NCBI GenBank assembly: GCA_023131225.1
Contig: JAGLZW010000009.1
Span: 32,490 to 96,489, forward strand
Direction of reading: 5' to 3'
DNA: 64,000 nucleotides
Source of the DNA: Candidatus Bathyarchaeota archaeon
GTDB taxonomy: Archaea > Thermoproteota > Bathyarchaeia > Bathyarchaeales > SOJC01
The stretch's first letter is position 1. Each line of letters begins with the position of its first letter. The translations under genes and the position numbers were made by a program. The notes beneath the pieces were generated by a model that saw only the letters and a program-made list of their open reading frames with translations, searched no databases and had not been told where the DNA came from. Positions 26,953 through 42,806 of the stretch are shown piece after piece.

Positions 26953-27069
26953 ACGTAGAGTCGGCGATTCGCAGTAACCAGCTACTATGCTAGCAAAAAT
27001 GATTTCAGTTTGAAAGCTTTATTTCTCCAAAGTATAAGAGATACCAAGCACACGCAGCAGGGAAAAATC

Positions 27070-28170
27070 ATGAGACTCCACAAAAAAATAAAAGACATCG
27101 CTTCAAGCTATCACCCTGATAAAGTCAAGATAGGCGTTCTAGGTTCACATTCCGCCTTAGAAATCGCTCATGGAGCAAAACAGGAAAGCCTTGAGGTGGT
27201 TGTGGTTTGCCAAAAAGGAAGAGAAAAAACATACACAAAACACTACAAAAACCTGTTCACCTATGCCTTAGTATTAGAGAAGTTTGTTGACATAATTAAA
27301 GATGAAAATCAGGAAAAACTGCGAGAACTGAACACGATTTTTGTTCCAAACAGGTCTTTTTCAGTATATGTGGGATATGATAACATAGAAAACGATTTTC
27401 TAATTCCAATCTTCGGAAATAGGCGCATTCTAAGAGCTGAGGAAAGAAATCTGCCAAAAAACCAATACTATTTGTTGAAAAAAGCAGGCATAAAAATGCC
27501 GAAAATCTTCAGCTCCCCCGAAGATATAAACCAACTGGTAATAGTCAAAGTTCCTGAAAAACAAAGAAAAATTGAGCGCGCCTTCTTCTACGCCTCTTCA
27601 CCAGAAGAATACATTAAAAGAGCCGAAGAAAGAATAAGAAAAGGCGTAATCGACAGACATGCTTTGGAAGAAGCCATAATTGAGGAATATATTGTAGGAG
27701 CAAAGTTCAACGCGAACTTCTTCTGGTCCCCACTAGACGACGAAATAGACCTTTTAGGGTTTGATAGGCGAATCCAAACAAACTTGGACGGCGTTTTAGA
27801 TTTGCCCGCCGACGAACAATTAGAGGCTAAGATAACCGTGCAAAATGTCGAAGTGGGACACATGGGCGCCACAATGCGAGAGTCACAATTGGAAAAAATT
27901 TTCGCAGCTGGAGAACAATTTGTCGAAGTATGCAAAAAAGAGTACCCGCCAGGCATGATAGGGCTTTTTGCACTGCAAGGTGCTATGAACAAAAACCTTG
28001 AATTCTATGTCTTCGATGTTAGCCATAGAATTCCAGGGTGCCCATGCGTAGAGCCAACTTCACCCTACATGAAATACAAGTATGGAAAGGAAGTTGGACC
28101 TGGAAGAAGGGTAGCTATAGAGATTAAGAAGGCAATAAAGCAAAAGAAGCTTGAGGTAATAGTGACTTGA
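27070..28170 (+). CDS. purP: FAICAR synthetase (PurP), first copy
   Basis: The product has about 366 residues with the PurP/ATP-grasp layout: KVKIGVLGSHSALEIAHGAK at the front, NDFLIPIFGNRRILRAEERN, a VGAKFNANFFWSPL strand, and the late LEFYVFDVSHRIPGCPC. It makes FAICAR from AICAR, formate and ATP in archaeal purine synthesis. GGGAAAAATC lies before the ATG at 27070, and homology starts there rather than at 27010. Its 3' end overlaps the second purP copy by 4 bases, so the two are translationally coupled. Confidence 0.88.
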   Translation: MRLHKKIKDIASSYHPDKVKIGVLGSHSALEIAHGAKQESLEVVVVCQKGREKTYTKHYKNLFTYALVLEKFVDIIKDENQEKLRELNTIFVPNRSFSVYVGYDNIENDFLIPIFGNRRILRAEERNLPKNQYYLLKKAGIKMPKIFSSPEDINQLVIVKVPEKQRKIERAFFYASSPEEYIKRAEERIRKGVIDRHALEEAIIEEYIVGAKFNANFFWSPLDDEIDLLGFDRRIQTNLDGVLDLPADEQLEAKITVQNVEVGHMGATMRESQLEKIFAAGEQFVEVCKKEYPPGMIGLFALQGAMNKNLEFYVFDVSHRIPGCPCVEPTSPYMKYKYGKEVGPGRRVAIEIKKAIKQKKLEVIVT

Positions 28171-29246
28171 TCGAGATAGAAGAGATATTAAATAATTATG
28201 ACAAAGACAAAATCTCCATTGGTACTATTGGCTCGCATTCAGCCCTTAACATTTTCAAAGGTGCCAAAGACGAAGGATTGCGCACTGTGTGTATCTGCAA
28301 AAAGAGTGATGAAATCGTTTATCGAAGGTTTCCAGTAACCGACGAAATTCTCTTGGTTGAGGATTTTAGAGAACTTCTAGACGACAGGATTCAGGAAAAA
28401 CTGCGAAGGCTGAATACAATTCTCATTCCCCATGGCTCGTTCAACGCTTACCTAGATTTGGATGAAGTAATGGACGATTTATGTGTGCCAATGTTTGGAA
28501 ACAGACAGTTGCTTCAATGGGAGGTTGACAGAAAAAAACAGGAAATATGGCTAAGAAGAGCCGATTTGCAGCTGCCTAAGACCTTCGACGAGCCAGACAA
28601 CATAGAAGGATTGACAATTGTGAAGTTTCCAGGCGCAAAGGGTGGAAAGGGCTATTTCCTTGTAGATTCTCCGGAAGCCTTCTACCGAAAATCGGAAGAT
28701 ATGATTCGGAAAGGCTTTATAAAAAAAGAAGATGTAGGTAAGATTCACTTGCAAGAATATATTTTCGGCGTGACAGTTTATCCATCATATTTCCGTTCGC
28801 TGCTCCGCAAAAGGGTTGAATTGCTGTGTGTAGATAGACGCTACGAGTCTTCTATCGATAGTCTTGGACGCATTCCCGCAGAGGAACAGCTTAAGATGAA
28901 TTGCTTGGCTCCCACTTATACGGTTATTGGCAACTTTCCAATAACACTAAGGGAATCATTGCTTTCCAAGTATATACGGATGGGCGACAATGTGGTGAAG
29001 GTTTCTGAGGAAATTGCTCCTCCAGGTATTATAGGACCGTTCTGCCTTGAAACGATAGTTAACGACGTTCCGGAAGTTTTTGTGTTTGAAATATCTGCTA
29101 GGATAGTTGCTGGAACAAATGTTGGCGTAGGCACATCGCCATATTCTTATTTGATGTATGGCGAACGAATTTATATGGGCAGAAGAATTGCCATGGAGGT
29201 AAAAAGCGCTGTGGCCGAAGGAAAAATAGGTGAAGTTGTAACCTGA
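28167..29246 (+). CDS. purP: FAICAR synthetase (PurP), second copy
   Basis: The 359-residue paralogue of the preceding gene starts at TTG 28167, four bases before the first copy ends. The same landmarks appear: KISIGTIGSHSALNIFKGAK, LCVPMFGNRQLLQWEVDRKK, YIFGVTVYPSYFRSLL, and VFEISARIVAGTNVGVGTSP. The two copies differ widely along their length, so the duplication is old. Many archaea have two purP genes, of which one may act on another substrate; which is which cannot be told here. Confidence 0.85.
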   Translation: MIEIEEILNNYDKDKISIGTIGSHSALNIFKGAKDEGLRTVCICKKSDEIVYRRFPVTDEILLVEDFRELLDDRIQEKLRRLNTILIPHGSFNAYLDLDEVMDDLCVPMFGNRQLLQWEVDRKKQEIWLRRADLQLPKTFDEPDNIEGLTIVKFPGAKGGKGYFLVDSPEAFYRKSEDMIRKGFIKKEDVGKIHLQEYIFGVTVYPSYFRSLLRKRVELLCVDRRYESSIDSLGRIPAEEQLKMNCLAPTYTVIGNFPITLRESLLSKYIRMGDNVVKVSEEIAPPGIIGPFCLETIVNDVPEVFVFEISARIVAGTNVGVGTSPYSYLMYGERIYMGRRIAMEVKSAVAEGKIGEVVT

Positions 29247-29296: not shown

Positions 29297-32026
29297 TTAT
29301 CTCCACTTCAATATTTTTCTGTTATAGAAAATCTCTGGAAGTATTAGAAAACCAGACATAGCAGTCACTATGACAAGGGCCCATTCAAGCGGATCATCCA
29401 TCACTACTGTTCCAAACAGTCCAATAAACGGCACAAGAATTGTCAGGATTGCTGAGCCTATAACAGCAATTAGCAAGAATTTATTTGAAAGGAATCCTAC
29501 TTTGAAAGCGTTGTGTTTCTCAGATCGACAATTCCATACGACGAATAACTCCTGCAGCGTCGCTCTTGTAAAAGCCATAGTTCTAGCCTGTGCCAACTTC
29601 AGCTCTGTCAAAGGTCCGGGAAGCAGATAGTACTGCCAGTAGAATAGACCTCCAGTTAAGAGGAATTGTAGTGTAAAAGTGGTAATTATCGAGGCCATTC
29701 TTCCATGTAACACTCCTTCTTTCGGATTTCGTGGAGGTCTTTGCATCACATCTTTCTCTGGAGGATCCATTGTTAATGCAAGGGCTGGCCCTCCATCAGT
29801 CACTAGGTTTAGCCATAGAATCATACCTGCGGTTAGAGGAAGTTCGAGGCCTAGTAATGCAAAAGCTCCGATAAGTGCCAACTCATCAAAGTTGCATCTT
29901 AGTAGAAAGAAGGAGAACTTCCTTATGTTGTCATAAATTGTGCGTCCGCCTTCTACGGCACTAACAATTGTGGCGAAGTTATCATCCGCAAGCACCATGT
30001 CCGCTGCCTCTTTCGTTACATCCGTGCCTGTAATGCCCATAGCAATCCCTATGTCTGCCTGCTTCAACGCTGGAGCATCATTAACGCCGTCTCCAGTCAT
30101 GGCAACGATTTCCCCTTTCTTCCTTAAGGCTTTCACAATTCGAAGCTTATGTTCAGGGGAAACTCTTGCATAGACCCTTATGTCCTTAACAATCTTTTCA
30201 AACTCTTCATCACTCATAGTATCAAGTTCAGCGCCTGTTAAAGCCATGTCAGCAGGGTTACCCTTGATTATGCCTATTTCTTTGGCCACTGCTACAGCAG
30301 TAAGTTTGTGGTCGCCAGTTATCATAATGGTCTTGATGCCTGCTTGTTGACACAACTTATTAGCTTCTTTAGCTTCTTCCCTTGGAGGATCAATCATCCC
30401 CACTAAGCCTACAAACACCAAGTCGCTTTCTACATGCTTGTTTATCTCTTCTGTTTTGCTGAGTTCGCGGAAGTCTTCAGGTTTAATGTCGGTTAATTCT
30501 TTGAAAGCCACTCCCAGCACACGGAGCGCGTCAGTTGCCATTTGCCCGTTTGTTTTCAAAATCTTTTGTTTTTCTTTTTTGGTTAGTTTTTTTGGTTCTC
30601 CGTTTTTGAAGATTTTCGTGCAGCGATCTAGAATGACTTCGGGGGCACCTTTCATGAAAGCCAGCAATTTCTCTTCAGACATTTCGTGAACGGTTGTCAT
30701 TCGTTTCCTTTCTGAAGTGAAGGGTATTTCGTGAACCCGAGGATATTTCTTCTCTAATTCTTTCTTTGTCATTCCTGCTTTTGTCGCTGCAACGATCAAA
30801 GCTCCTTCTGTTGTGTCGCCGATTACTTTCTCGCCATCATACGATGCGTTGGTACAAACTGCACCAGCGCCAAGAAGCAAATTTAGATTTGTGTCTTCCT
30901 TTGCGTCTGAAGGCTTGCTATCCAGCAGAAATTGTCCCTTTGCCTCGTAGCCCACGCCTGTGACTTCAATCATTTCGCTGTTTGTGAAAATTTTGCGGAC
31001 AGTCATTTCACCTTTCGTTAGTGTACCGGTTTTATCGGAGCAAATCACAGTAGTAGCGCCTAGAGTTTCTGCAGAAGCAAGCCGTCTAATTATTGCATTT
31101 CGTTTCGCCAACTCACGAGCTCCTAAAGCTAGTGAGATTGTTACTACTGCTGGAAGACCTTCTGGAACCGCTGATACCGCCAACGCAACTGCTGTCATGA
31201 AGTTCTCTACTACTGTTCCAGGTCTCGCGGGGTCCAACAGTTCTAGGACAAATATGGCGATACATGCAAAAACGATAATTATTCCTAACTTCTTTGCAAA
31301 GCTTTCCAGCTTAAGCTTTAACGGTGTTTCCTCTACTTCAACTGATTGCACCATTTCAGCGATTTTTCCAAACTCGGTTTCCATGCCAGTAGAAGTTACT
31401 ACAGCCTTTCCTCGACCATATGTTACATAAGTCGCCGTAAATATCATATTTCTTCTATCGGCTACAGGCGCATTTTCATCAACAGTTTCGGTTCTTTTCC
31501 CTACTTGTGTAGACTCGCCTGTTAAGACAGCTTCATCAGTTCTCAAGACTACAACTTCGATTAGTCTGCAATCTGCGGGAACACGGTCCCCCGATTCCAA
31601 AAGCACAATATCCCCGGGCACAACCTCCTTTGCTGATACCAACACTTCTTTTCCATTTCTCATTAGTCGCGCTTTCGGAGCGGTAAGCTTTCTCATGGCT
31701 TCCATTGCTTTTTCAGAGCGATATTCTTGGACGAAGCCGACTACTGAATTGAGAACGACTATAGTGGCTATTGTGGCAGCGTCGGTTGTCTCCCCAACAG
31801 CGAAGGAGATGGCTGTTGCGATCAACAGCATAACCACAAAAATGTCTTTGAATTGGTTTAGAAAGATTTGAAGAGCGGTGGTTCGTTTTCTCTCTTTTAG
31901 TTCATTAAGCCCATACTTCGCTAAGCGTTGTTTTACCTCTTCCTCTTTCAAGCCAAGAGAGTCTGCATGCAGCTCCTCAAGCACTGTCTCAATTGACTTG
32001 GAATGCCACGCTTCACTCATCGCCAC
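29297..32026 (-). CDS. Calcium-type P-type ATPase
   Basis: This 909-residue pump has an N-terminal cation-ATPase domain, the actuator motif VLTGEST, the phosphorylation site ICSDKTGTLTKGEMTV and the hinge AMTGDGVNDAPALKQADIGI. Membrane segment 4 reads VALAVSAVPEGLPAV, the PEGL form of PII-type Ca2+ and Na+/H+ pumps, and segment 6 has LWLNLVTDGGPAL. Ten membrane spans are expected. It uses ATP to export Ca2+ or Mn2+. It is the last core gene before the accessory island. Confidence 0.93.
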   Translation of the reverse strand: MAMSEAWHSKSIETVLEELHADSLGLKEEEVKQRLAKYGLNELKERKRTTALQIFLNQFKDIFVVMLLIATAISFAVGETTDAATIATIVVLNSVVGFVQEYRSEKAMEAMRKLTAPKARLMRNGKEVLVSAKEVVPGDIVLLESGDRVPADCRLIEVVVLRTDEAVLTGESTQVGKRTETVDENAPVADRRNMIFTATYVTYGRGKAVVTSTGMETEFGKIAEMVQSVEVEETPLKLKLESFAKKLGIIIVFACIAIFVLELLDPARPGTVVENFMTAVALAVSAVPEGLPAVVTISLALGARELAKRNAIIRRLASAETLGATTVICSDKTGTLTKGEMTVRKIFTNSEMIEVTGVGYEAKGQFLLDSKPSDAKEDTNLNLLLGAGAVCTNASYDGEKVIGDTTEGALIVAATKAGMTKKELEKKYPRVHEIPFTSERKRMTTVHEMSEEKLLAFMKGAPEVILDRCTKIFKNGEPKKLTKKEKQKILKTNGQMATDALRVLGVAFKELTDIKPEDFRELSKTEEINKHVESDLVFVGLVGMIDPPREEAKEANKLCQQAGIKTIMITGDHKLTAVAVAKEIGIIKGNPADMALTGAELDTMSDEEFEKIVKDIRVYARVSPEHKLRIVKALRKKGEIVAMTGDGVNDAPALKQADIGIAMGITGTDVTKEAADMVLADDNFATIVSAVEGGRTIYDNIRKFSFFLLRCNFDELALIGAFALLGLELPLTAGMILWLNLVTDGGPALALTMDPPEKDVMQRPPRNPKEGVLHGRMASIITTFTLQFLLTGGLFYWQYYLLPGPLTELKLAQARTMAFTRATLQELFVVWNCRSEKHNAFKVGFLSNKFLLIAVIGSAILTILVPFIGLFGTVVMDDPLEWALVIVTAMSGFLILPEIFYNRKILKWR

Positions 32027-32307
32027 ACGCGCCTACAGTAAGTTGTAGCTTTAACATGGCTTCTCCTTAAAGGGTTTTTCTATCATCATTTTCCTTCAAA
32101 CCTTTCTCAGTGAACAACGTTGCCCCTATGTTCGAAAATGATGGCAAATTTTGTAAGGAATGGCTATATATTTTCGAAGTAAACTCGTGGGCATTCACTT
32201 TGTGCAGATCGCTAGGGACAAGGAACGTTCACCTGATGCTCGTCATATAAAGAAGATAAGCGATGGAATCAAGCTCTTAGAAAGCAATCACAATAAAGAG
32301 ACCACAC

Positions 32308-32910
32308 TTGAAGAAGAATCCATACATTCCAACAGATAAGGAACTTGTTAGGATTCCTAAGTTGCTAAAGAAGATGAGGGAAGGCAGAAGAGAGGATTAT
32401 AAATACCTCGCTTTTATAGCCACAACCGTGCTACAGTTCTGCGGGAGAACCAATGCTCTATCGGAATTAAGGTTTGACATGGTTGAGGAGAATGGAGATG
32501 ACAAGCCCATTGTTTCTTACATTGGCAAGCACAATGTAGAGCAGGTGAAGGGAATAACCAATGGCTGGTACAGGGGCTTCTTGAAGGAATGGAGGGAGTA
32601 TGTTAAGCATAGATACGAGGATACACCTTATTTCTTCCCAAACAACGGCGGCCATATCGACGACAGAACATTAAGGCGTAAATTCATTGAATTTATGCAC
32701 TTGTGCAGGTTACCTCAACTGACAGTCCACAGTTGGAGGTATATCTACGCAACTAAGCTATACCTAAAAGGCGTTTCACCAGACGCCATTAAAGACATTC
32801 TTGGAGTAGACAAGCGAACCCTAAAATACTACATCAAAGCCACGCTGCAAAGAAAAAAGAGAGCCCTTTTCACTCACTTAGAGAAGGTAAGCGTATTGCC
32901 AAAAGGATAA
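32308..32910 (+). CDS. Tyrosine recombinase, catalytic domain only
   Basis: The 200-residue protein starts at TTG 32308 and has the tyrosine recombinase core: R in QFCGRTNALSELRF, H-x-x-R in LTVHSWRYIYATKLY, and the tyrosine in DKRTLKYYIKAT. The usual N-terminal SAM-like core-binding domain is missing. Upstream DNA (32190-32339) contains a short frame in another phase, with charged coding-like sequence, that overlaps its start; a frameshift may have split a longer integrase. It opens the accessory island and may be what brought it in. No tRNA fragment is visible beside it. Confidence 0.7.
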   Translation: MKKNPYIPTDKELVRIPKLLKKMREGRREDYKYLAFIATTVLQFCGRTNALSELRFDMVEENGDDKPIVSYIGKHNVEQVKGITNGWYRGFLKEWREYVKHRYEDTPYFFPNNGGHIDDRTLRRKFIEFMHLCRLPQLTVHSWRYIYATKLYLKGVSPDAIKDILGVDKRTLKYYIKATLQRKKRALFTHLEKVSVLPKG

Positions 32911-33030
32911 TTGAAATCCACTAGAAATGTTCTGTTAACTTTGTTATACGTGTATATGGAAACAAACAAAAGAAGAAATAAGCATTGAATCATAAGTGTT
33001 TATGCAACAAATGATTTCTGGGCGAGAATT

Positions 33031-33273
33031 ATGTCATGTAAAGCCAATTATTTGGCGGAAAGGCTGTTAAAATGTCTGGAGAAATCAGAGGATAAGGCTG
33101 ATCTGGATACATGGATTGATTCCTTAGAAGAATTATCTGAGATTGAAGATGCTTTTGAAGTTGGAATTAAGAAGAAGTGGAGGCGCGTGTATCGAATAAA
33201 TCACTTGCAAAACATATTTGAAACAGTAGAGCATAGTAGGAGATTGGGAAGATATATTTATGAAATTCAGTAG
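33031..33273 (+). CDS. Small acidic helical protein
   Basis: The 80-residue protein begins MSCKANYLAERLLKCLEKSE and ends KKKWRRVYRINHLQNIFETV with a short tail. No family is recognised. Its stop overlaps the start of the HD gene by 14 bases, which implies translational coupling, so it is likely a partner or regulator of the HD protein. Confidence 0.45.
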   Translation: MSCKANYLAERLLKCLEKSEDKADLDTWIDSLEELSEIEDAFEVGIKKKWRRVYRINHLQNIFETVEHSRRLGRYIYEIQ

Positions 33274-35164
33274 CTCACTTAGAGATCCTGTTTATGGCGT
33301 GGTTCCAATAACTGCTGTTGAGCAAGAAATCCTGAAGTTGCCAATTATGAACCGATTGAAAAACATAAAGCAACTTGGTCTGGCGTATTTGGCGTTTCCT
33401 GGTGCCAACCATACGAGATTCGAGCATTCAGTTGGTGCAATGCACGTAGCTTCTTTGATGGCAACAGCAGTTGAGTTGGACGAGCATCATACAGAAACAA
33501 TAAGGATTGCAGCTCTCCTTCACGATGTCGGACACCCACCTTTTTCACACAGTATAGAATTTGCTTGCAACATGTTCGGGATTTCTGAAATCCCAAATCA
33601 TAAGAAAACAACTTTTCAAATAATAGCTACCGATAAGGAGCTTAATAAAATACTTAAAAAAGCCAAACCTTTGGTTCATACAAAAAATATCGCAAAACTA
33701 GCGGTGGGAACCTTTGAGGAATCTGTAACATTGAAACGCATAATAGATGGTCCAATAGATGCTGATAAAATAGACTATATATTGCGAGACAATCATCATT
33801 GTGGCTTTCCAGTGGCCCTAGACATAAACACCATTAGTGAAATTTTGAAAAAAGACGAGAATTATGGAATTGCTATAACACCGGAGGGACAATCATTTGC
33901 AGAGCAATTATTCATGGGCAGATACCATCTAATATCCAAGATACATCATAACCTGAAAAACAGACTTGGCAATTATCTACTTGCACTAACATTGGAAGAG
34001 GCATGACGTAACACAAAACAAAAAGAACAGATTGCAGATGAACTGACGAAATTATGGACTGACGGAGATTTATTAGCCTTTCTCAAGGAGGCTAAAGAGA
34101 CGTTTCCTGTTTTGAAGAATCACTTGCTAGGTGTTGAAACCTTTCATGAGATCTGCAATTTTGGTTATGCCGACTTAACTCCCTTAGCCCGATATAGTGC
34201 AGCCATTTTCAGTAATTCTCTATCTTTCATCCCAGAGTTATCACACACTTTTAGTAAATGGGTTGAGAAAAAGAGAGTGTTTTTGGATGCTTATCTCGCT
34301 TCACCTCCTGAGATGACTTTAACGATTGGATCCAACTCTTCTCATTACCTAATTGATACTCCGCTCTCAAAAGGTGCACTTGATGCCTCGCTAAAGGAAA
34401 TACACGTTGCTGTATATTCTTTTGAACACATCAACTCGAAAGACATAGACTATGACAAACTTGTTAAGGCATATTCAAAAGAGTTGGATAAAGGCATGGA
34501 TAAAAAAGCAGAAGATTTGATCAAGATCTGGTGGAAGGGGGATAGGAAATCCTTTTGTTTGCATAAGCTCGTTGAGTTAGAGTTAAATCGTAAAACCATC
34601 AAATTGAGGAACAAGAAGGACTTCTCATCTGACTTGATTTTGATCACTGCAAATGCTCTTTATCAATCATTTGTTGATGTCCTTGGGGCTGTTGTATCAG
34701 TTTTTAGTCTGAGCGAGCTAGTAAGAATTCTGAATGATTTGAAGAAGGAAGGCTTTTTCAAGAGAAGTGACGGTTCAGCCATGTCTTTCTATGATATCCC
34801 GCAAACTCCTGCTGGTGGTTTCAGTTTTCCCGCCCAATTCCTTGTCGACATAGAAATGCTTGAAACCTTTGGTCTCATGTACAGGCTTATTAAAGTTCAG
34901 AAATTCGGCGAGAAGTATCAGCAAAAATATCAGATGAGGATTTCGGGTTGGGGAAGGGGGTACTATCAAAGAAATCTGTCAAATGTTCAGGATCTGCTAA
35001 ACCTCTTTACAAGACTCAAAGAATACTTTGTTAAGATTCTGAGTGATCATAAGCAAGATTATGAAAATTACTTTGAAAAAGTGAGGAAAGAGCCCACTAG
35101 TCGGAAGATCGCTACCGAGGCAAAGGAATTAGGGAGGAAGTTGCCAATTAGAGTATTACTTTGA
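33260..35164 (+). pseudogene. SAMHD1-like HD phosphohydrolase, interrupted by one in-frame TGA
   Basis: The N-terminal 248 codons carry an HD domain: HTRFEHSVGAMHVASLM, then AALLHDVGHPPFSHSIEF, then DGPIDADKIDYILRDNHHCG. TGA at 34004-34006 ends this frame. However, the same frame reads on without another stop for 386 codons, as RNTKQKEQIADELTKLW and onward to 35164, and the joined length of about 634 residues suits a large HD protein. CGA (Arg) to TGA is a single-base change. The most likely cases are a nonsense mutation or a sequencing error. Recoding is possible but no selenocysteine signal is apparent. Such enzymes can cleave dNTPs, also in phage defence. Confidence 0.7.
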
Positions 35165-35616
35165 TCGCTATGGCACATTTCCTTAATCTGTATACATAGA
35201 ACAATAATCCATAGAGCTTAAATACAACCGCTCTAAAGTATTAGATATATTACCTTTCTCAATCAGTTATCTTCCTCGCGGAGATATTCTTTGTTCATAA
35301 AACTTGTGCACGCGCGTAGGTTGCGTTCCTATTATGTTTTGACCGATATCGCGCGCAATCGTGCATGCAAGTGATGGAACATTCCAATAAAAGTTGGCGT
35401 TATGTTTAGATAACACTAGTTCCCATGGAGAGTTGTCCCTATTCCTTCTACTAGGCTTCTATCAGTTCGCCCAAATGTCTAAATGTCTGCTTTTTTCCGC
35501 CCGTATCAATTAAAAAAGTCGAATCTCATCAATTATCTCAGAAAGAAACATTGGAAAAGTATGTCATAATGTAAATATAAGTGAATTGATTTAATCTGAG
35601 AAAGAGGCTATCAACA
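35165..35616. other. Gene-free stretch in the island
   Basis: These 452 bases hold no convincing coding frame. An imperfect inverted repeat with alternating G-C tracts lies at 35303-35316 and 35352-35371 (CTTG-TGCACG-CGCG against CGCG-CGTGCA-CAAG with bulges). It probably separates the HD gene from the GHKL gene and may hold the promoter of the latter, near TATAAGTG at 35576-35583. Confidence 0.35.
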
Positions 35617-37641
35617 ATGAGTTTTGAGACCTATGTAATGAAAATTTCACGTACGACAATAGACAAATTGGGTATCAAAATGTATGATAAAGCGTCAGCT
35701 GTTGTGGCTGAACTTATTGCTAATTCTTATGATGCAGATGCCGAACTAGTGACCGTGACAATTCCTCTCAACAGTTGGCTTGCAACAAAAAAGGGAAACG
35801 AAACTGTGGACCGTGGTTTAGAGATTGTTGTAGAAGATGATGGTCATGGGATGCCTCCTGAAGTTATAAACGACTTCTATTTGAAAGTAGGTTCCAATCC
35901 AAGACTAGACGAGAAAAGAGGCCGAAATTCTCTTGAAAAGAAAAGACCAAGAATGGGAAGAAAGGGAATAGGAAAATTGGCTCCCTTTGGTATCTGCAAA
36001 ATAATTGAAGTGAGATCCGCTGGGGGAGAAAGAACTGTTCAAGGATATAAGACAGCTCACTTCATTATGGATTTCGATAAGATACTCAAAGACACAGATT
36101 CACCATATCATCCGGATAGAGGAGAATTTGATGGCAAATACTCAGAACGAAGAGGGACAACGATTATACTTAAAAATTTTAATAGACGCAGAACTCCTGA
36201 TCAAAAAACATTTAACCGACAATTAGCTAGGAGATTCGGTTCGAGATTGCCAGATTTCGAGATTAAAGTCGTCGACACTGCCGCTAAGCATGGGGAAGAA
36301 AATGAATGGATTATTGGCGGTTTAGACTTAGAGATTAATGAAGAGACTCTAATCGAGTTGGAAAAGATCGGCACAGAGGCAGAAGGTTATAAAGACATTC
36401 CGAAGCTAACACTAGAAGATGGTACAGAATTAGCCCTTTCTGGATGGATTGCGTACTCCAAGAAAGCTTACAAAAACCCTGAGATGGCGGGCATCAGAAT
36501 ATACGCTAGAGGCAAAATTGCATCTACGACTAGAGACTTCGGAATCAAATCCGGGTTTACTGGGGAGTACAAGTTAAGGTCTTATCTGATAGGTGAAATT
36601 CTTGCTGATTGGATAGATGAAGACGAGGATGAGGATCTAATTCGAAGTGATAGACAAGATATATTGTGGGAGACAGAGAAAGGAACTGCTCTCAGAAAAT
36701 GGGGGCAGAAAATTTTAAAGATACTAGCGAAAAAAGCGAGGACCCCAATGAGGAAAATCGCTCGTAGGGAATTTATGGAAAAATCGAATTTGGAAGAGGA
36801 AGCGAAGAAGAGATATAAAGACAGTAGAGTAGTAGCTTCAGCTATTGAAGTTGGCAAAACCATTGGTTCTATTGCATCGTTAGACGATTTGCAGGATCCA
36901 GACTATGTTGAAGACCTCAAGGAATTGGTTTTGACATTTGCTCCTCATAAAATGCTTGTAGATAAGCTCCGAGAGGCTGCGAGTGAAGATATTGATAAAC
37001 CTATTACTGCACTAGTCAAACTGTTCAATGATGCAAAGGTAGCGGAAACAGCGTCGCTGGGACAAGTAGTTCAAGAGCGGATACGAATTATCAAGAAGTT
37101 GGAGTTATTACTTGGACCAGGCAAAAAAACTCACGAACGCGATTTGCAGAGATTGTTAGAGGATGCCCCTTGGTTAATTGATCCTCAATGGACTGTTTTG
37201 CAGGCAAACAGACAGTTTGAATCTATGAGAATAGCATTTGAAAGATGGTTCGAAAAGACCTACGGTGCGAAGATTATTACAAGCACTGTCGAGTCTGAAA
37301 CAAGAAGGCCTGATTTTATTATGTTACATGTCGGTAGCAATATCGAAATAGTGGAAATAAAGAATGTGGACCATACATTGGCAGATGAAGAATTCAACAG
37401 AATCTTAACTTACTATGTTGCTGTAGAAGGTTTCATGAATGATAACCCCACATTAAAGAAGCAATTTCCTTTCCTACACATAAGTTTAATCTGCGACAAA
37501 CTTGACCTACAAGAACAAAGTATAAAATTATCTTACAAGAAATTATATGAGGATAACCTTCTTGTAAAAAAGACTTGGGAAGAATTGTTAATCGACACTA
37601 GAAAAGTTCACGAAGCATTCCTTGAAATTGTGGAATCTTAG
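35617..37641 (+). CDS. GHKL (MutL/MORC-like) ATPase fused to a PD-(D/E)XK nuclease
   Basis: This 674-residue protein starts with a Bergerat ATPase fold: N-box AELIANSYDADAE (residues about 31-43), G1 VEDDGHGMPPE (about 73-83) and G2 MGRKGIGKLAPFG (about 112-124). The middle is charged and helical. The C-terminus, from about residue 510, has RRPDFIMLHVG followed by IEIVEIKN, the PD...(D/E)xK pattern of restriction-like nucleases. Published analyses describe MutL/MORC-type ATPases with nuclease domains in restriction-modification operons. Here it converges on an m5C methyltransferase pair with a 1-base gap, so I infer it is the restriction component. Confidence 0.75.
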   Translation: MSFETYVMKISRTTIDKLGIKMYDKASAVVAELIANSYDADAELVTVTIPLNSWLATKKGNETVDRGLEIVVEDDGHGMPPEVINDFYLKVGSNPRLDEKRGRNSLEKKRPRMGRKGIGKLAPFGICKIIEVRSAGGERTVQGYKTAHFIMDFDKILKDTDSPYHPDRGEFDGKYSERRGTTIILKNFNRRRTPDQKTFNRQLARRFGSRLPDFEIKVVDTAAKHGEENEWIIGGLDLEINEETLIELEKIGTEAEGYKDIPKLTLEDGTELALSGWIAYSKKAYKNPEMAGIRIYARGKIASTTRDFGIKSGFTGEYKLRSYLIGEILADWIDEDEDEDLIRSDRQDILWETEKGTALRKWGQKILKILAKKARTPMRKIARREFMEKSNLEEEAKKRYKDSRVVASAIEVGKTIGSIASLDDLQDPDYVEDLKELVLTFAPHKMLVDKLREAASEDIDKPITALVKLFNDAKVAETASLGQVVQERIRIIKKLELLLGPGKKTHERDLQRLLEDAPWLIDPQWTVLQANRQFESMRIAFERWFEKTYGAKIITSTVESETRRPDFIMLHVGSNIEIVEIKNVDHTLADEEFNRILTYYVAVEGFMNDNPTLKKQFPFLHISLICDKLDLQEQSIKLSYKKLYEDNLLVKKTWEELLIDTRKVHEAFLEIVES

Positions 37642-37642
37642 T

Positions 37643-38305
37643 TTATCTTGTGTAATTACATATCAAGCAAATAGGACATTTCTCACAATGTGGTGTCTTC
37701 TTGCAAACTATAGCGGCAAAATCAAGAAGAGCTTCATTGTATTGTTGTCCTAAACCTGGTGGTACAATTTCAGCAGCAAATCGCCATAAAGCTTCATCTT
37801 CACTAGGCCTTTTCTTGAAGTTCGAACCATGGAAAACTCTTGATAGGACACGTGCCACATTCACATCCACGATAGAAACGTCCTTGCCGAAGCCAAAACA
37901 CAAGATGGCTCTTGCTGTGTAAGGCCCTACACCGGGAAGCTTAACCAATTCGTCTTCCTGGTCTGGAATTCTGCCATTATATCTATCACGCACTTCTTTC
38001 ATAAGTGACGTGAGCCATTCGACCCTTTTCTTCAATCCCATAGGATGAAAAAACTTCCCAAGACCCTCGACATCGGCTTTCGCTATACTCTCAGGTGAAG
38101 GAAAATTCTCAACGAGTTTCGGAAAAAACTTTGCAACACGATTTGCCGGTGTTCTTTGTAGTAGAATTTCGACCAACAACACCTTGTACGGAGTTCTGTC
38201 TTCTCTCCATGGAAACGACCTTCTGTTTTTCTCGCCCCAATCGAGTATTAGTTGGACAAAACGGGTTTCTTTATTTTTGGGATTCTTGTCAGCAATGCGG
38301 CTCAC
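37643..38305 (-). CDS. HhH-GPD DNA glycosylase, probably T:G mismatch type
   Basis: The 220-residue protein is a MutY/EndoIII-family glycosylase. The helix-hairpin-helix reads KLPGVGPYTARAILCFGFGK, followed by the catalytic aspartate in SIVDVNVARVL (Asp147). At the position of the EndoIII lysine it has tyrosine (Tyr129), as in Mig.MthI-type thymine glycosylases that repair T:G mismatches from deaminated 5-methylcytosine. Four cysteines (201, 207, 210, 216) can hold a 4Fe-4S cluster, with C-x5-C in place of the usual C-x6-C and an extra Cys213. It follows the cytosine methyltransferase gene by 12 bases, as expected for that job. Confidence 0.85.
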   Translation of the reverse strand: MSRIADKNPKNKETRFVQLILDWGEKNRRSFPWREDRTPYKVLLVEILLQRTPANRVAKFFPKLVENFPSPESIAKADVEGLGKFFHPMGLKKRVEWLTSLMKEVRDRYNGRIPDQEDELVKLPGVGPYTARAILCFGFGKDVSIVDVNVARVLSRVFHGSNFKKRPSEDEALWRFAAEIVPPGLGQQYNEALLDFAAIVCKKTPHCEKCPICLICNYTR

Positions 38306-38317
38306 TTGTTTATCTTC

Positions 38318-39412
38318 CTATTGAGGATGGATGGATCTTCCTACAGCAATTGCTAGTGTAGGAGGCATCGCATTACCAATTTGCCACGTTATTGATTCCT
38401 TAGTGCCAACAAAGCTATAACGGTCTTCGAAGCTTTGAAGACGGGCTGCTTCCCTTGGAGTTATGCCTCTGTCCTGGTCTGGATGAATAAAACGACCACA
38501 AGCAGGAACGACGCAACGAGAAGTAATCGTAGGAGACGGTTTTGACCAGATCATTCTTCCATATACGCTTTCCGCTCCTCCACCACTCATCTTCTTATGA
38601 CACGGTAACCACAGATGTTTCGGGAGGTCCTTTCTACTTCCACCATTTTTGGGTATGTTTTTAATAATTGTGAGCGCGTTTTCTCCGTGGTCTGTGGCTT
38701 CGTGGAGGGGAATCGAGACATGTTTCTCACCACTATTGAGTGAAGGCAAGTCTGCTATTGTGTCCTCCACAGTTACCCAGTTCAATAAACGCTCGTCTTT
38801 TGCTCGACTCGGATCTGCGTGTGTCTCATGTGGGAGAAGTGGGATAAGGTAGTCGGTTATTGCCTCTTCTCTCGCGAAGATGAGAATCAATCTTTTTCTT
38901 TGCTGAGGGACGCCGAAGTTGGCCGCATTCAACATTTTCCCTATTGGGAAGTAGCGATGTTTCTTCAGCTTTCTAATGAACTTCCTAAGAAACTTCTTTC
39001 CCCTTTCATGTGTTATCCCAGGCACATTTTCAAATATGACCATCCGGGGAAAGATCTCGACGATTCGTTCTGCGAATACCATTAACAAGTCGTCTCTGTG
39101 GTCTGACGAGTCCCCCTTTCTAGTTCTTCGGAGCGAACTGAACCCTTGACAGGGCGGACATCCCACTACGACATCAACCTCGCCTCTCTTCAGTCCAGTC
39201 ATTCTCAGGATTTGGTCGCCAGTTACGTTTCTGAGGTCGTCTTCTATTGGTTGAACACCTACATTCATCGCATACGTCTCACACGCTGAATGATCTATGT
39301 CCACAGCCGCTACTATCTTGAAGCCAGCTTCCTTGAATCCCAAGGACGCTCCGCCGCATCCTGAGTACAAATCGATTAAAGTTGGCTTTGGACACATTTT
39401 TCGTCGCCCCAT
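38318..39412 (-). CDS. DNA (cytosine-5) methyltransferase
   Basis: The product has about 364 residues and all main C5-methyltransferase motifs: motif I LIDLYSGCGGASLGFKEAGF, motif IV VVGCPPCQGFSSLRR with the catalytic cysteine, motif VI FENVPGI, motif VIII QQRKRLILIFA, and motif X QIGNAMPPTLAIAVG. The variable target-recognition part lies between VIII and IX, so the recognition site cannot be read. It protects DNA from a cognate nuclease, here likely the GHKL-nuclease. It is first in a two-gene operon with the glycosylase. Starts at 39424, 39412 or 39397 are all possible. Confidence 0.9.
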   Translation of the reverse strand: MGRRKMCPKPTLIDLYSGCGGASLGFKEAGFKIVAAVDIDHSACETYAMNVGVQPIEDDLRNVTGDQILRMTGLKRGEVDVVVGCPPCQGFSSLRRTRKGDSSDHRDDLLMVFAERIVEIFPRMVIFENVPGITHERGKKFLRKFIRKLKKHRYFPIGKMLNAANFGVPQQRKRLILIFAREEAITDYLIPLLPHETHADPSRAKDERLLNWVTVEDTIADLPSLNSGEKHVSIPLHEATDHGENALTIIKNIPKNGGSRKDLPKHLWLPCHKKMSGGGAESVYGRMIWSKPSPTITSRCVVPACGRFIHPDQDRGITPREAARLQSFEDRYSFVGTKESITWQIGNAMPPTLAIAVGRSIHPQ

Positions 39413-39489
39413 CTGCGAAAACATTCAACTTGCATATATGACATAAATAAGAAAATAAATCCTTTGTACATCTTCTCACTCAGGGAAAC

Positions 39490-39753
39490 CTAAAGCTTTA
39501 AGACATTTGATAGATTGATTGTTGTCTTGGCTTGTTTCGGGTCTAATGTTAGGCCTTCCCACAGTTTGTGAACCACGTTATTTCTCATCCTTCTAACTTC
39601 CATCATTATAGTATACGTTGGATAATCTATGAGCCCAGATGCGAATAAGAACATGATAATTTGCTCTAATCCAAGACGGTCAAATCTTTGTGGTTTTATC
39701 TTACCCTCGAAATGAGCCCGCAACTTCCATTGTCCTATAGTTTCAAGAAGCAT
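39490..39753 (-). CDS. HEPN-like small protein
   Basis: In the 87-residue protein the segment YTIMMEVRRMRNNVVHKLWE contains R-x4-H (RNNVVH), the active-site pattern of HEPN ribonucleases, in the helical setting usual for them ('lR..RN.vvH'). The N-terminal half is helical as well (GQWKLRAHFEGKIKPQ, LGLEQIIMFLFASGLIDYPT). HEPN proteins are common RNase toxins in defence islands and toxin-antitoxin pairs. It is last in a minus-strand run of four genes, and no MNT partner is seen. Confidence 0.5.
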   Translation of the reverse strand: MLLETIGQWKLRAHFEGKIKPQRFDRLGLEQIIMFLFASGLIDYPTYTIMMEVRRMRNNVVHKLWEGLTLDPKQAKTTINLSNVLKL

Positions 39754-39827
39754 AGCGTAAAGTTGCTCTTTAATTTTTCAATTAGATAGAAAACATACTA
39801 AAGAATAAAAATGGCTCAGATGTTTCT

Positions 39828-40031
39828 TTAAGCCAAAAACAGTCTGTGTAATTGTATAGCGACCCCTAGGACCAGTAAGATCGAAGCTATAAGAGCAAAA
39901 CGCCTCTCAAACTTTAGGCGAACTGAAAGGTCGACGTCAGAACTTCTGACCCATACTAAACCTATTGCTAATAGTGCGATGCCAACCTGTGATATGATGT
40001 TTCCGAGATAAAACCACAAATCAATGTTCAT
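39828..40031 (-). CDS. Small two-helix membrane protein
   Basis: The 67-residue protein has two membrane helices, FYLGNIISQVGIALLAIGLV and FALIASILLVLGVAIQLH, joined by a charged loop (RSSDVDLSVRLKFERR). Its start overlaps the stop of the previous gene by 4 bases, so the two are translationally coupled. In an island context it might be a membrane effector or an anchor; this is inference. Confidence 0.55.
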   Translation of the reverse strand: MNIDLWFYLGNIISQVGIALLAIGLVWVRSSDVDLSVRLKFERRFALIASILLVLGVAIQLHRLFLA

Positions 40032-40810
40032 ACTTCATCGCTTAACTCCCATAAGACAACATCTTTTACAAGACAATCGATTGATTCAAGATCTAGTCTC
40101 CGCTCGAGATCTGAAAGCTGAACTAACGCCACGTTTTTAGCAAAAACATCTAGGGGTACGTGCAGAGCTAAACTGTTTAACCTCTCCTCATATGTTTTAA
40201 CCTGCCTTTTTAAAAGAAAAAGACTTTTCCAATCATGAATTAACCTATAGTTTTCTGCGAACTTGGGGTATCTTTTAGAGAGTCTCTCCACTGCACTTAT
40301 GAAAGCATTCTGTGCAGCATCAAAGCCAAAACCCTGCATGTAATGACGAGGATGATGAAAAAGGTCGTATGTAAAGTCTCTAGGTCTAAAGGCTCGCCAT
40401 ATAACATCAGCTACGACTTTTTCTATCACCCTTCTGGCCTTTTCAGGAATGCCTCTCCATGCAGAAGGCACGCTCCATACAATTTTCAGAAGCCCGGTAT
40501 GATCTATAGATAAGTGAAGGGATTCTTCAGCACAATGTTTAGCTACTTCTTCAACATTGAACATGCCAGTAGAGGGAGAAAAATCGACAGTTTGTGCTCG
40601 TATCTCATATGCTTCGTCCTCAATTCCGCTTGCTAACCAAAGGTATCTGAAGTCGTAACTAATTGCACTTTCCGTCGTTCGTTTTTTAACTTTGTCAACC
40701 ATATGCTTAGTCTTCATAAACCTAATTCTGTCACTAATCCTCGTAATATTTTCAGAAGAAAAAGGAAGAGGTGATACTAGAACGTGATGTGCCTTAACAT
40801 ACGGCATCAT
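40028..40810 (-). CDS. Island protein of unknown function (260 residues)
   Basis: No family is recognised. The protein is soluble, rich in aromatic and charged residues, e.g. SISYDFRYLWLASGIEDE-like stretches, KIVWSVPSAWRGIPEKARRV and FRPRDFTYDLFHHPRHYMQG. The C-terminal third is helical (RLIHDWKSLFLLKRQVKTYE). AGGAGA lies 5 to 8 bases before the paired ATGs at 40805-40810. It is coupled to the small membrane gene downstream (4-base overlap) and 13 bases from the winged-helix gene upstream. Confidence 0.5.
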   Translation of the reverse strand: MMPYVKAHHVLVSPLPFSSENITRISDRIRFMKTKHMVDKVKKRTTESAISYDFRYLWLASGIEDEAYEIRAQTVDFSPSTGMFNVEEVAKHCAEESLHLSIDHTGLLKIVWSVPSAWRGIPEKARRVIEKVVADVIWRAFRPRDFTYDLFHHPRHYMQGFGFDAAQNAFISAVERLSKRYPKFAENYRLIHDWKSLFLLKRQVKTYEERLNSLALHVPLDVFAKNVALVQLSDLERRLDLESIDCLVKDVVLWELSDEV

Positions 40811-40823
40811 ATGCTTCTCCTAG

Positions 40824-41303
40824 TCACAGCTTCTCGATCACTTTCCCTTGAGACTTGTCCCATTTGTTGGCATATCTCTGTAATAGCTTCATTACGGAGT
40901 TTGAAGGGTCTTTTGAAACGTTTGCTACGTCGAAGACTGCCTTTTTTTGTTTCGTGGTCCAGTGACCAGTGGCTATAAGTCCTAACTCTTTACCCTTGTC
41001 AGTAAGCTCGTAAAGATTATGTCCTGAAGCACCATATAGTTCTTCTATTTTTTCGGTAAGGTATCCTGCATCTCTTAACCAGTCCAAGTCCTCTCTTAGA
41101 TCATCGTCGTCGGGTCCAGCATAACAATTACTACTAAAGCCATAGGAAAATATCTGAGGAAGTTTTCTAGGCTCCGTTCGACCTGCTTTGGAAAGAGCAT
41201 ATACGACAATCTTAAAGCGTTTCCATGAATATGCTTTTGCTCCACAGGCAAGAATGAATGCGCATAAATTGCCCAGATCATCGAACTTATATTCTTTGGA
41301 CAT
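40824..41303 (-). CDS. Winged-helix protein, first gene of the unknown island operon
   Basis: The product has about 159 residues. DDLREDLDWLRDAGYLTEKI followed by NLYELTDKGKELG is a typical winged-helix recognition helix and wing, similar to PadR- or PhoU-unrelated archaeal regulators. The part before it (LCAFILACGAKAYSWKRFKI) is helical. GGGGAAC precedes the ATG at 41303, and a longer frame to 41399 adds only a lysine-rich leader. It probably regulates, or works with, the three genes that follow. Confidence 0.5.
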   Translation of the reverse strand: MSKEYKFDDLGNLCAFILACGAKAYSWKRFKIVVYALSKAGRTEPRKLPQIFSYGFSSNCYAGPDDDDLREDLDWLRDAGYLTEKIEELYGASGHNLYELTDKGKELGLIATGHWTTKQKKAVFDVANVSKDPSNSVMKLLQRYANKWDKSQGKVIEKL

Positions 41304-41437
41304 TCTGTTCCCCTTTTTTCGTCTAGCTTTCAATAGGTTATTCTTTTCCTTAAATAAGTTTTTATGTTTCTTAATTAAAATATTTAACTGATTCTGCATA
41401 TGTATCGGTGAAATAGGAAGGCATAGGAGGTCGAGTG

Positions 41438-42016
41438 ATGAAAAAAGGCTTTAAATCACTTGAGGAGCAGCAACTTAAGCAAAGGCTTGCGAAGGTATGT
41501 AGGCTTCTCTTTAGAATGGGATTAGTTGCGCATGCTGAGGGAAATGTGAGTTGCAGGATAGGACAAAGCCAATTTTTTATAAAGAAAAGTGGCTGTACTT
41601 TTAGGGCAATGAAGCCAGAAAATTTCGTTTTGATTGATGAGAAAGGTATTTCACTAACTAGCGGTGAGCCTTCAACGGAAAAACTTCTTCATCTAGAAAT
41701 CTACAAACATATGCCGGAAGCAAATTTTGTTATACATACGCACCCTCCAAACGTGATTAGAGTGTCCTCCACTCAGATAGATACCCTAAGACTCCCTAGG
41801 GAAAGCCATGCCTTTCCGATCACTGGCGATATTCCTATCATAGGTCCCTTTAAGGCGGGTACTCATAAATTAGCGCTCGAAGCCGCCAAAGCCTTGAAGA
41901 AAAAGAATGCAAGAGCTGTAGTTTTAAGGGGACATGGCCTCTCAGTGGTCTGCCCAACTTTAGAGGAGGCATTTGACCTTACAGTTTTTATAGAGAAGGT
42001 AGCACTCCTAAAGTGA
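41438..42016 (+). CDS. Class II aldolase / adducin-family enzyme
   Basis: The product has about 192 residues. AGGAGG at 41425-41430 fixes the ATG at 41438. Zn-site motifs are present: VIHTHPPNVIR with two histidines and VVLRGHGLSVV with the third, plus GNVSCR and the catalytic glutamate in STEKLLHLEIY. This is the L-fuculose-phosphate aldolase/5-methylthioribulose group. In archaea such enzymes often supply DHAP-type aldol cleavage or act in purine salvage by-product handling. The exact substrate is not fixed. Confidence 0.85.
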   Translation: MKKGFKSLEEQQLKQRLAKVCRLLFRMGLVAHAEGNVSCRIGQSQFFIKKSGCTFRAMKPENFVLIDEKGISLTSGEPSTEKLLHLEIYKHMPEANFVIHTHPPNVIRVSSTQIDTLRLPRESHAFPITGDIPIIGPFKAGTHKLALEAAKALKKKNARAVVLRGHGLSVVCPTLEEAFDLTVFIEKVALLK

Positions 42017-42638
42017 TGCTAAACTCGATCGATCAATAGAAAGCGAGGATGCGGAGCATTTTAGCCAGCTTTAGGCTGGCATTGTCAACTCAGTTGTCGA
42101 ACGAGAAGAAGGAAATAGCCCATAAGTGTCGCCACGATAATTATGCTCACAGGTTATACGACTTTGAACCGTGCGCTGACCTTTACCCTTCTTTCAACCA
42201 TGACTCCAATGCTTTGATTGCTAAACGTTGGTCAAGGTTTAGATGAGACCGCGGATGTCTGCACTGACAGAAAATGCAACATGGAGAAAACCGTTAGCCT
42301 CAGTTTGCAACACACATCTCACTTACGCACCAGTATCCCCTTATCAAATTGCCAATCAAGAAACTTTGATGCATGCATACATGCCATATACTTGCACGCC
42401 CACTTGCAAAGAAAACAACGATGCTTACAAAATTAGTAGCAATTTTAGACTTACAAAAAAACAGAGAATTTAGTCGAAAATTAAAGCCTTCTTCTTTTGA
42501 TATGGGCTAATTATTTTGGCTTTGAAGAGAATTCAGTGTGTGTTCTTAAAAGAAACCCTCTAAAATATTCGGATACTATGGCAAATTTTTTATGTATTAT
42601 CATAGCAACCATAATACATTGTTATGGAGGAAGAAATA
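42017..42638. other. Long gene-free stretch after the aldolase
   Basis: About 600 bases have no supported coding frame. A perfect hairpin, GCCAGC-TTTAG-GCTGGC, lies at 42064-42080, shortly after the aldolase stop. The rest shows no tRNA, no repeat array and no ribosome-binding site. It could be eroded coding DNA at the right-hand border of the island. Confidence 0.35.
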
Positions 42639-42806
42639 ATGCCAAAATGTCCAAAATGTGGCGGTGAAGGCAAGATGAGAAAGAGTTGGAAGATGGCTGG
42701 TCGACCTGACAAGCAAGGCAAGAGAACGCAACTTGAAATCGGCCTTTACGACTGCCCGAAATGCGACAAAGCTTTTCGCGTTGTCTTAAGTAAGAAGAAA
42801 ATCTAA
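42639..42806 (+). CDS. Small zinc-ribbon protein
   Basis: The 55-residue protein has two CxxC knuckles: MPKCPKCGGEGKMRKS and IGLYDCPKCDKAFRVVLSKK. One zinc ion is likely bound. GGAGGA at 42626-42631 favours the ATG at 42639 over 42624. Basic residues around the knuckles fit nucleic acid binding; chromatin-linked zinc ribbons of this size are common in archaea. It lies alone between intergenic stretches. Confidence 0.7.
   Translation: MPKCPKCGGEGKMRKSWKMAGRPDKQGKRTQLEIGLYDCPKCDKAFRVVLSKKKI

What the first reader, a model, noticed from the sequence alone, without database searches (positions are those of the whole stretch)
35617..39412. GHKL-ATPase/nuclease fusion convergent with an m5C methyltransferase and T:G-type glycosylase: a complete but unusual restriction-modification module
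Three genes abut with gaps of 1 and 12 bases. The nuclease has a MutL/MORC-like Bergerat ATPase and a C-terminal PD...(D/E)xK site. The methyltransferase has every core motif, and the glycosylase has the Tyr129/Asp147 pair of Mig.MthI-type T:G repair enzymes. MORC-like ATPases in restriction operons are known from published comparative work. A single-chain ATPase-nuclease as the only restriction subunit, paired in an archaeon with its own deamination-repair enzyme, is not a standard type. How ATP hydrolysis by a clamp-like domain gates cutting is open.
Basis: partly seen in the sequence, partly recalled or inferred. Interest (0 to 1): 0.75.

Follow-up and report, generated by a model that had tools for sequence, protein, structure and literature searches.

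The report
ATP-gated restriction module with swappable repair
On a 10-kb DNA island that four examined relatives lack, an archaeon carries three adjacent genes that likely form a restriction system: a MORC-like ATPase joined to a predicted DNA-cutting domain, a predicted cytosine methyltransferase, and a glycosylase predicted to repair the mutations such methylation would cause; this kind of system is already known, but in some related systems the repair gene's place is filled by a predicted repair enzyme of a different kind.

Summary
Window 35617-39424 encodes a 674-aa GHKL ATPase fused to a PD-(D/E)xK nuclease, a Mig-type HhH-GPD glycosylase and an m5C methyltransferase (MTase), with 1- and 12-base gaps; folds and catalytic residues check out. 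That a one-chain ATPase-nuclease is "not a standard type" does not hold: it matches the curated BbrUII/HgiDII restriction-enzyme family end to end (255 bits, under that model's cut-off of 550), the architecture was described as paraMORC3 in 2008, and a GHKL-Shedu protein is an active anti-phage protein. The repair slot is less ordinary. Of 79 genome loci (best of 529), 24 have MTase+Vsr, 29 MTase with no detected repair gene, 2 MTase+Mig (both archaeal), 24 no MTase. Two archaea of the same phylum have Vsr where this window has Mig; two halophile plasmids have Mig; one homologue has Vsr fused to the nuclease, another locus has Vsr fused to the MTase. The module sits on a 10,294-bp island missing from four of five relatives checked, and occurs in 1 of 256 genomes of the class. 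The recognition site could not be inferred. Verdict: a divergent new variant of a known restriction-modification kind.

The parts
35617..37641 (+). ATPase-nuclease (674 aa): GHKL/MORC-like ATPase with S5-like transducer (about residues 9-380), helical region (about 354-500), C-terminal PD-(D/E)xK nuclease (about 500-674; D566, E580, K582)
37643..38305 (-). Mig.MthI-type HhH-GPD glycosylase (220 aa, GTG start), predicted T:G (U:G) mismatch glycosylase; no MutY C-terminal domain found
38318..39424 (-). m5C DNA methyltransferase (368 aa), predicted protective enzyme of the module; recognition region about residues 226-310
32135..42428 (.). Island of 10,294 bp, bounded by AAAAT at 32135-32139 and 42429-42433; absent at an intact site in the same-genus genome G001; the two flanks lie next to each other in G003, G004 and G009
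32308..32910 (+). Tyrosine integrase (200 aa, catalytic part) just inside the left end of the island
   Evidence: PF00589, 27.4 bits, cut-off 27.1
33260..34006 (+). HD-domain phosphohydrolase-like gene on the island; role in the module unknown
   Evidence: PF01966, 44 bits

Best explanation
Window 35617-39424 is a three-gene module that likely works as a Type II-like restriction-modification system with its own base-excision repair enzyme, carried on an island that four examined relatives lack. Inferred mechanism: the methyltransferase puts a 5-methyl group on cytosine at a shared target. The ATPase-nuclease is predicted to dimerise through its ATP-bound MORC/MutL-like head, closing on DNA and bringing two PD-(D/E)xK domains together to cut targets that lack the methyl group. 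The glycosylase would remove the thymine left when a methylated cytosine deaminates, so that host AP endonuclease, polymerase and ligase can restore the site. Shown here: the genes, predicted folds, catalytic residues, gene association across relatives, and the absence of the island at the same place in relatives. Not shown: DNA cleavage, dimerisation, ATP dependence, the recognition sequence, and T:G activity.
Against: 22 Nocardia loci and 2 Cenarchaeum loci carry the ATPase-nuclease without an m5C MTase within 4 kb (some of these stretches are cut by contig ends), so the nuclease may act outside R-M. No palindrome is depleted specifically in this genome: GTCGAC 36 observed, 38.4 expected in 336 kb. 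The score is under the BbrUII model's own cut-off. The glycosylase has Glu where Mig.MthI has Leu187. Foldseek alone gave no PDB match under E 0.001 for the nuclease domain. No expression or activity data exist.
Confidence: 0.82

Rival explanations
1. The ATPase-nuclease is a Shedu-like (VcSduA-type) anti-phage effector that senses something other than methylation, and the MTase with its glycosylase is a separate methylation-maintenance pair that merely lies beside it.
For: VcSduA has the same architecture and protects against phages (passages of PMC12137116). SduA_C is the commonest Pfam match of the nuclease domain (43 of 57). 22 Nocardia loci lack an MTase within 4 kb. Mig-type genes sit near m5C MTases without this ATPase-nuclease in other loci.
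Against: MTase within 4 kb in 55 of 79 genome and 78 of 80 viral loci; a Vsr repair domain fused to the ATPase-nuclease itself; end-to-end match to a named restriction-enzyme family.
Confidence: 0.13
2. The glycosylase is not a T:G enzyme but a short MutY-like A:G enzyme, unrelated to cytosine methylation.
For: Position 187 (Mig numbering) is Glu in this protein and in 98 of 120 listed homologues, not Leu. NCBIfam's best name is mutY (182 bits, cut-off 286.5), and some sources name its homologues A/G-specific adenine glycosylase.
Against: Tyr126, Asp144 and Asn146 equivalents in 120 of 120 and Ala50 in 109 of 120 listed homologues; no MutY C-terminal domain; best PDB match Mig.MthI; linkage to m5C MTases.
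Confidence: 0.12
3. The module recognises GTCGAC, the site reported for HgiDII.
For: The ATPase-nuclease is a relative of the BbrUII/HgiDII family, and M.HgiDII is reported as a GTCGAC m5C MTase (passage of PMC5867850). In the pooled genome loci of relatives GTCGAC is mildly depleted (824 observed, 918 expected, rank 23 of 80).
Against: Score under the family cut-off (255 against 550); the recognition region is only 38% identical to that of the halophile MTase L171, whose partner nuclease is above that cut-off (800.7 bits); GTCGAC is not depleted in this genome.
Confidence: 0.15

Closest known systems
BbrUII/HgiDII-family Type II restriction enzymes (NCBIfam NF050001) with m5C MTases
   Same: Same domain order over the full length and an adjacent m5C MTase; the halophile plasmid relative L171 passes the family cut-off (800.7 bits) and also has MTase and Mig-type glycosylase
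   Different: The window protein scores 255 against a cut-off of 550 and lies in a separate part of the tree from L171; its specificity is unknown
paraMORC3 (Iyer, Abhiman and Aravind 2008, PMC2292703)
   Same: GHKL + S5 + C-terminal restriction-endonuclease-fold nuclease; such families sit in R-M neighbourhoods with methylases and Vsr
   Different: The parts read (1-3 of 4) describe Vsr, not a glycosylase, among the partners
VcSduA, a GHKL-type Shedu (PMC12137116)
   Same: N-terminal GHKL ATPase, C-terminal PD-(D/E)xK nuclease, predicted dimer with a clamp-like middle domain (passages)
   Different: The passages seen give it no MTase or repair partner
Mig.MthI with the NgoPII-type R-M system on Methanothermobacter plasmid pFV1
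   Same: Archaeal R-M locus with a glycosylase 38% identical to this one
   Different: The nuclease there is annotated as an NgoPII-family enzyme, not an ATPase-nuclease

Membership tests
BbrUII/HgiDII restriction enzyme (NF050001) | End-to-end match to the family model | tested here: met
   residues 6-669 on model 1-642 of 659, E 1.6e-75
BbrUII/HgiDII restriction enzyme (NF050001) | Curated score cut-off of 550 bits | tested here: not met
   255 bits; so a relative, not filed as a member
BbrUII/HgiDII restriction enzyme (NF050001) | Cleavage of the family's target (GTCGAC is reported for the HgiDII MTase) | not testable with these tools
   site depletion gave no signal
paraMORC3 | GHKL + S5 module followed by a restriction-endonuclease-fold domain with E-D-ExK | tested here: met
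   E507 in 90, D566 in 92, E580 in 91 and K582 in 91 of 92
paraMORC3 | Sequence clustering with the published paraMORC3 set | not tested
   the published alignment was not fetched
Shedu (SduA_C, DUF4263) | Pfam gathering score 27 for SduA_C | tested here: not met
   16.2 bits whole protein, 19.2 bits domain
Shedu (SduA_C, DUF4263) | Nuclease fold closest to Shedu | tested here: inconclusive
Mig.MthI-type T:G glycosylase | Tyr126, Asp144, Glu42 and Ala50 equivalents, no MutY C-terminal domain | tested here: met
   Y129, D147, E46, A54; only HhH domains
Mig.MthI-type T:G glycosylase | Leu187 of the base pocket | tested here: not met
   Glu in this protein and in 98 of 120 listed homologues
Mig.MthI-type T:G glycosylase | T:G excision | not testable with these tools
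   needs an assay
m5C DNA methyltransferase | Conserved motifs I, IV, VI, VIII, IX, X | tested here: met
   Pfam PF00145 206.6 bits
Type II R-M system | Nuclease blocked by the cognate methylation | not testable with these tools
   needs cloned enzymes

The most novel reading that the evidence does not exclude
The MORC-like ATPase is a shared clamp for both jobs of the module: in one state it drives cutting of unmodified sites, in another it works as a MutL-like loader that brings the module's own repair enzyme (Vsr or Mig, exchangeable in the same slot, sometimes fused to it) to T:G mismatches at deaminated sites. The restriction enzyme would then be a built-in mismatch-repair platform, a living intermediate between restriction and MutL-type repair.
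Probability: 0.13. Interest if true: 0.78.

Novelty: new variant of a known kind. Interest (0 to 1): 0.42.

Why it matters
Systems that methylate cytosine pay a mutation tax at their own sites. Here the same kind of nuclease and MTase is found with two unrelated predicted repair enzymes (a Vsr endonuclease or a Mig glycosylase), exchanged in one gene slot, and Vsr is naturally fused to either partner. That suggests the repair gene is a working third part of ATP-gated restriction systems, and gives natural material to test how a MORC/MutL-type ATPase gates a nuclease and whether it also touches repair.

Tried and rejected
Recognition site by depletion: in 336 kb of this genome against 259 kb of same-genus G001 (where the nuclease was not found), GGCC (0.47 against 0.52 of expected) and GATC (0.63 against 0.58) are depleted in both. 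No palindrome is clearly more depleted in this genome; the strongest difference was GGTACC at z -1.8. GTCGAC was 36 against 38.4 expected. Whole genome: 202 GTCGAC. Pooled 79 genome loci: GTCGAC 824 against 918 expected, rank 23 of 80 palindromes; not decisive.

Idea rejected: 'archaea use Mig, bacteria use Vsr because host repair differs'. Two archaea of the same phylum (L176, L177) carry Vsr in the slot, and plasmids of the bacteria Caldicellulosiruptor and Thermus carry Mig-type genes.

Against a fixed pairing: the Halorhabdus tiamatea plasmid MTase (40.6% identical to the window's) has no listed glycosylase or ATP-binding protein within the 4.5 kb shown on each side.

The first scan of genome contigs with the single protein found no relative; the alignment scan found 529, of which the best 80 (79 distinct loci) were kept. 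Mig-type genes in viral contigs: 3 loci, 2 with an MTase homologue in the fetched stretch, none with the ATPase-nuclease. Nocardia neighbours: of 5 ORFs scanned in two loci, one matched Pfam, a TPP enzyme. PDB sequence searches of the ATPase-nuclease and of its nuclease profile gave no relative. Foldseek alone gave no PDB match under E 0.001 for the nuclease domain. No Rfam match in 32000-42700.

Rows dropped before counts: on the nuclease tree all but 4 of the Nocardia loci, loci under 150 bits, and duplicates of the window; on the MTase tree identical rows and MTases under 220 bits, which leaves out the MTases of the L007 type. The simpler neighbour table was replaced.
Full report
What is there. 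Three genes lie at 35617-37641 (+), 37643-38305 (-) and 38318-39424 (-), with gaps of 1 and 12 bases, the first convergent with the other two. The host is an archaeon: the window encodes a TATA-binding protein, and the closest relatives that carry an organism name are listed as Candidatus Bathyarchaeota for both glycosylase and MTase (P0179, P0245).

The glycosylase. Best solved relative: Mig.MthI, 1kea (E 2e-45), 38% identical. The equivalents of Mig Phe27, Glu42, Arg47, Ala50, Tyr126, Asp144 and Asn146 are kept; Leu187 is Glu. Over the 120 listed homologues (of 373 found) Tyr126, Asp144 and Asn146 are kept in 120, Ala50 in 109, and position 187 is Glu in 98 and Leu in 14. PMC2714593 (passages) reports that A50V plus L187Q turned Mig.MthI from T/G to A/G, and that Y126S inactivates T/G activity. 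So T:G activity is likely but not certain.

The methyltransferase. Motifs I, IV, VI, VIII, IX and X are present. Its recognition region (226-310) is 62, 57, 56 and 56% identical to those of L008, L068, L176 and L177, but 18-44% to the 19 other MTases compared, some of them over short aligned stretches. The MTases of the first group may share a target (inference).

Neighbourhoods. 79 distinct genome loci (from the best 80 of 529) were scored with profiles built (E<=1e-8, within 4 kb): 24 MTase+Vsr (two of these Vsr hits, L054 and L067, are weak, 36 and 43 bits), 29 MTase only, 2 MTase+Mig (L008 Methanophagales, in the window's gene order; L068 Thorarchaeota, Mig beyond the MTase), 24 neither (22 Nocardia and 2 loci of one Cenarchaeum genome). 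Some loci are cut by contig ends, so absences are lower bounds on presence. Of 80 viral loci (best of 90): 60 MTase only, 18 MTase+Vsr, 0 Mig, 2 neither. Halobaculum and Haloplanus plasmids carry Mig, MTase and ATPase-nuclease; the Halobaculum nuclease scores 800.7 bits, above the BbrUII cut-off. Two same-phylum archaea, L176 and L177, have Vsr between nuclease and MTase, the slot that Mig fills in the window. P0033 is a Vsr-ATPase-nuclease fusion (812 aa) and L079 a Vsr-MTase fusion. Contig lengths shared between the best-120 lists: MTase-glycosylase 29 (shifted-length control mean 1.3, maximum 4), nuclease-glycosylase 9 (0.7, 3), nuclease-MTase 15 (1.1, 5) (119 of 120 MTase rows). All 8 plasmid Mig carriers opened, of 230 matching records, have a cytosine MTase within about 2.1 kb; 2 of the 8 also have the ATPase-nuclease.

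Trees. On the nuclease tree (167 rows, quick method) Mig carriers need at least 4 changes (shuffled mean 13.5). The window lies in a starred set of 31 rows with 11 Mig, 1 Vsr (P0033) and 19 unlabelled; L068 and the halophile pair lie elsewhere. Nine of the 14 Mig labels rest on shared contig lengths only. On the MTase tree (98 rows) a starred set of 23 holds the window and 12 other Mig rows, 3 Vsr, 1 MTase only and 6 unlabelled; 10 of the 15 Mig labels there, and the Vsr label of P0357, rest on shared contig lengths. So the repair enzyme was exchanged more than once, or partners were shuffled (inference); the quick trees have long branches, and L176 and L177 are unsurely placed on the nuclease tree.

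The island. In same-genus G001 (96% DNA identity) the flanks of window 32135-42428 are contiguous; the junction shares only AAAAT. In G003, G004 and G009 the two flanks also lie next to each other; in the fifth genome searched, G007, they match different contigs. Insertion in this genome is the simpler reading. A tyrosine integrase fragment lies at 32308-32910 (27.4 bits against a cut-off of 27.1). Neither the MTase (E<=1e-40) nor the nuclease (E<=1e-20) is found in the other 255 genomes of the class; 2 others of 398 in the phylum sample have a nuclease relative.

What it is compared with. Iyer and colleagues 2008 (parts 1-3 of 4 read) describe paraMORC3 as GHKL+S5 with a C-terminal RE-fold nuclease, list Vsr and methylases in MORC/paraMORC operons, and propose DNA looping. 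PMC12137116 (passages) shows VcSduA, a GHKL-Shedu protein, protecting against phages. PMC5867850 (passages) gives GTCGAC for M.HgiDII. A survey of archaeal R-M systems (PMC10609329, searched for terms) mentions Vsr but not the word glycosylase. A glycosylase as repair partner of a GHKL restriction system was not found in print: searches (1 paper, on an archaeal virus; 0; 0), in the open-licence library only. The precedent pFV1 has Mig with an NgoPII-family enzyme.

Judgement. A real, complete and divergent example of a known kind of restriction-modification system, with a variant repair partner. Cleavage, dimerisation, ATP dependence, target and T:G activity are predictions.

Noticed in passing
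window 32135-42428: 10,294-bp island bounded by AAAAT, absent at an intact site in the same-genus genome and with flanks next to each other in three other family members; also carries an HD-domain gene, a class II aldolase-like gene (41435-42016) and genes without any Pfam match at E<=0.1 (34112-35164, 40028-40810).
   Followed up: partly
L038, L043-L046, L048, L050, L051, L053 and others (22 Nocardia loci): Nocardia species carry the ATPase-nuclease without an m5C methyltransferase within 4 kb, which hints at a stand-alone, perhaps Shedu-like role.
   Followed up: partly
L006:7923-12476: In a Cenarchaeum genome the ATPase-nuclease is followed in the same direction by an open frame of 830 codons with a second GHKL ATPase domain (Pfam match from codon 204); an IS66-type transposase frame lies upstream and no MTase within 4 kb.
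   Followed up: no
P0033 and L079:9996-11774: Natural fusions of a Vsr domain to the ATPase-nuclease (812 aa) and of a Vsr domain to an m5C MTase (open frame of 593 codons).
   Followed up: partly
336 kb of the window's genome and 259 kb of G001: GGCC (about half of expected) and GATC (about 0.6) are strongly depleted in both genomes, so a shared pattern not explained by this module.
   Followed up: partly
window 27010-29246: Two adjacent genes of the same DUF1246/DUF1297 family, a tandem pair.
   Followed up: no
L171 and L172 (Halobaculum and Haloplanus plasmids): Mig-type glycosylase, MTase and ATPase-nuclease followed in both by SprT-like and DUF6339 genes (with an IS6 transposase between in Haloplanus), a shared cargo on two plasmids.
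   Followed up: no
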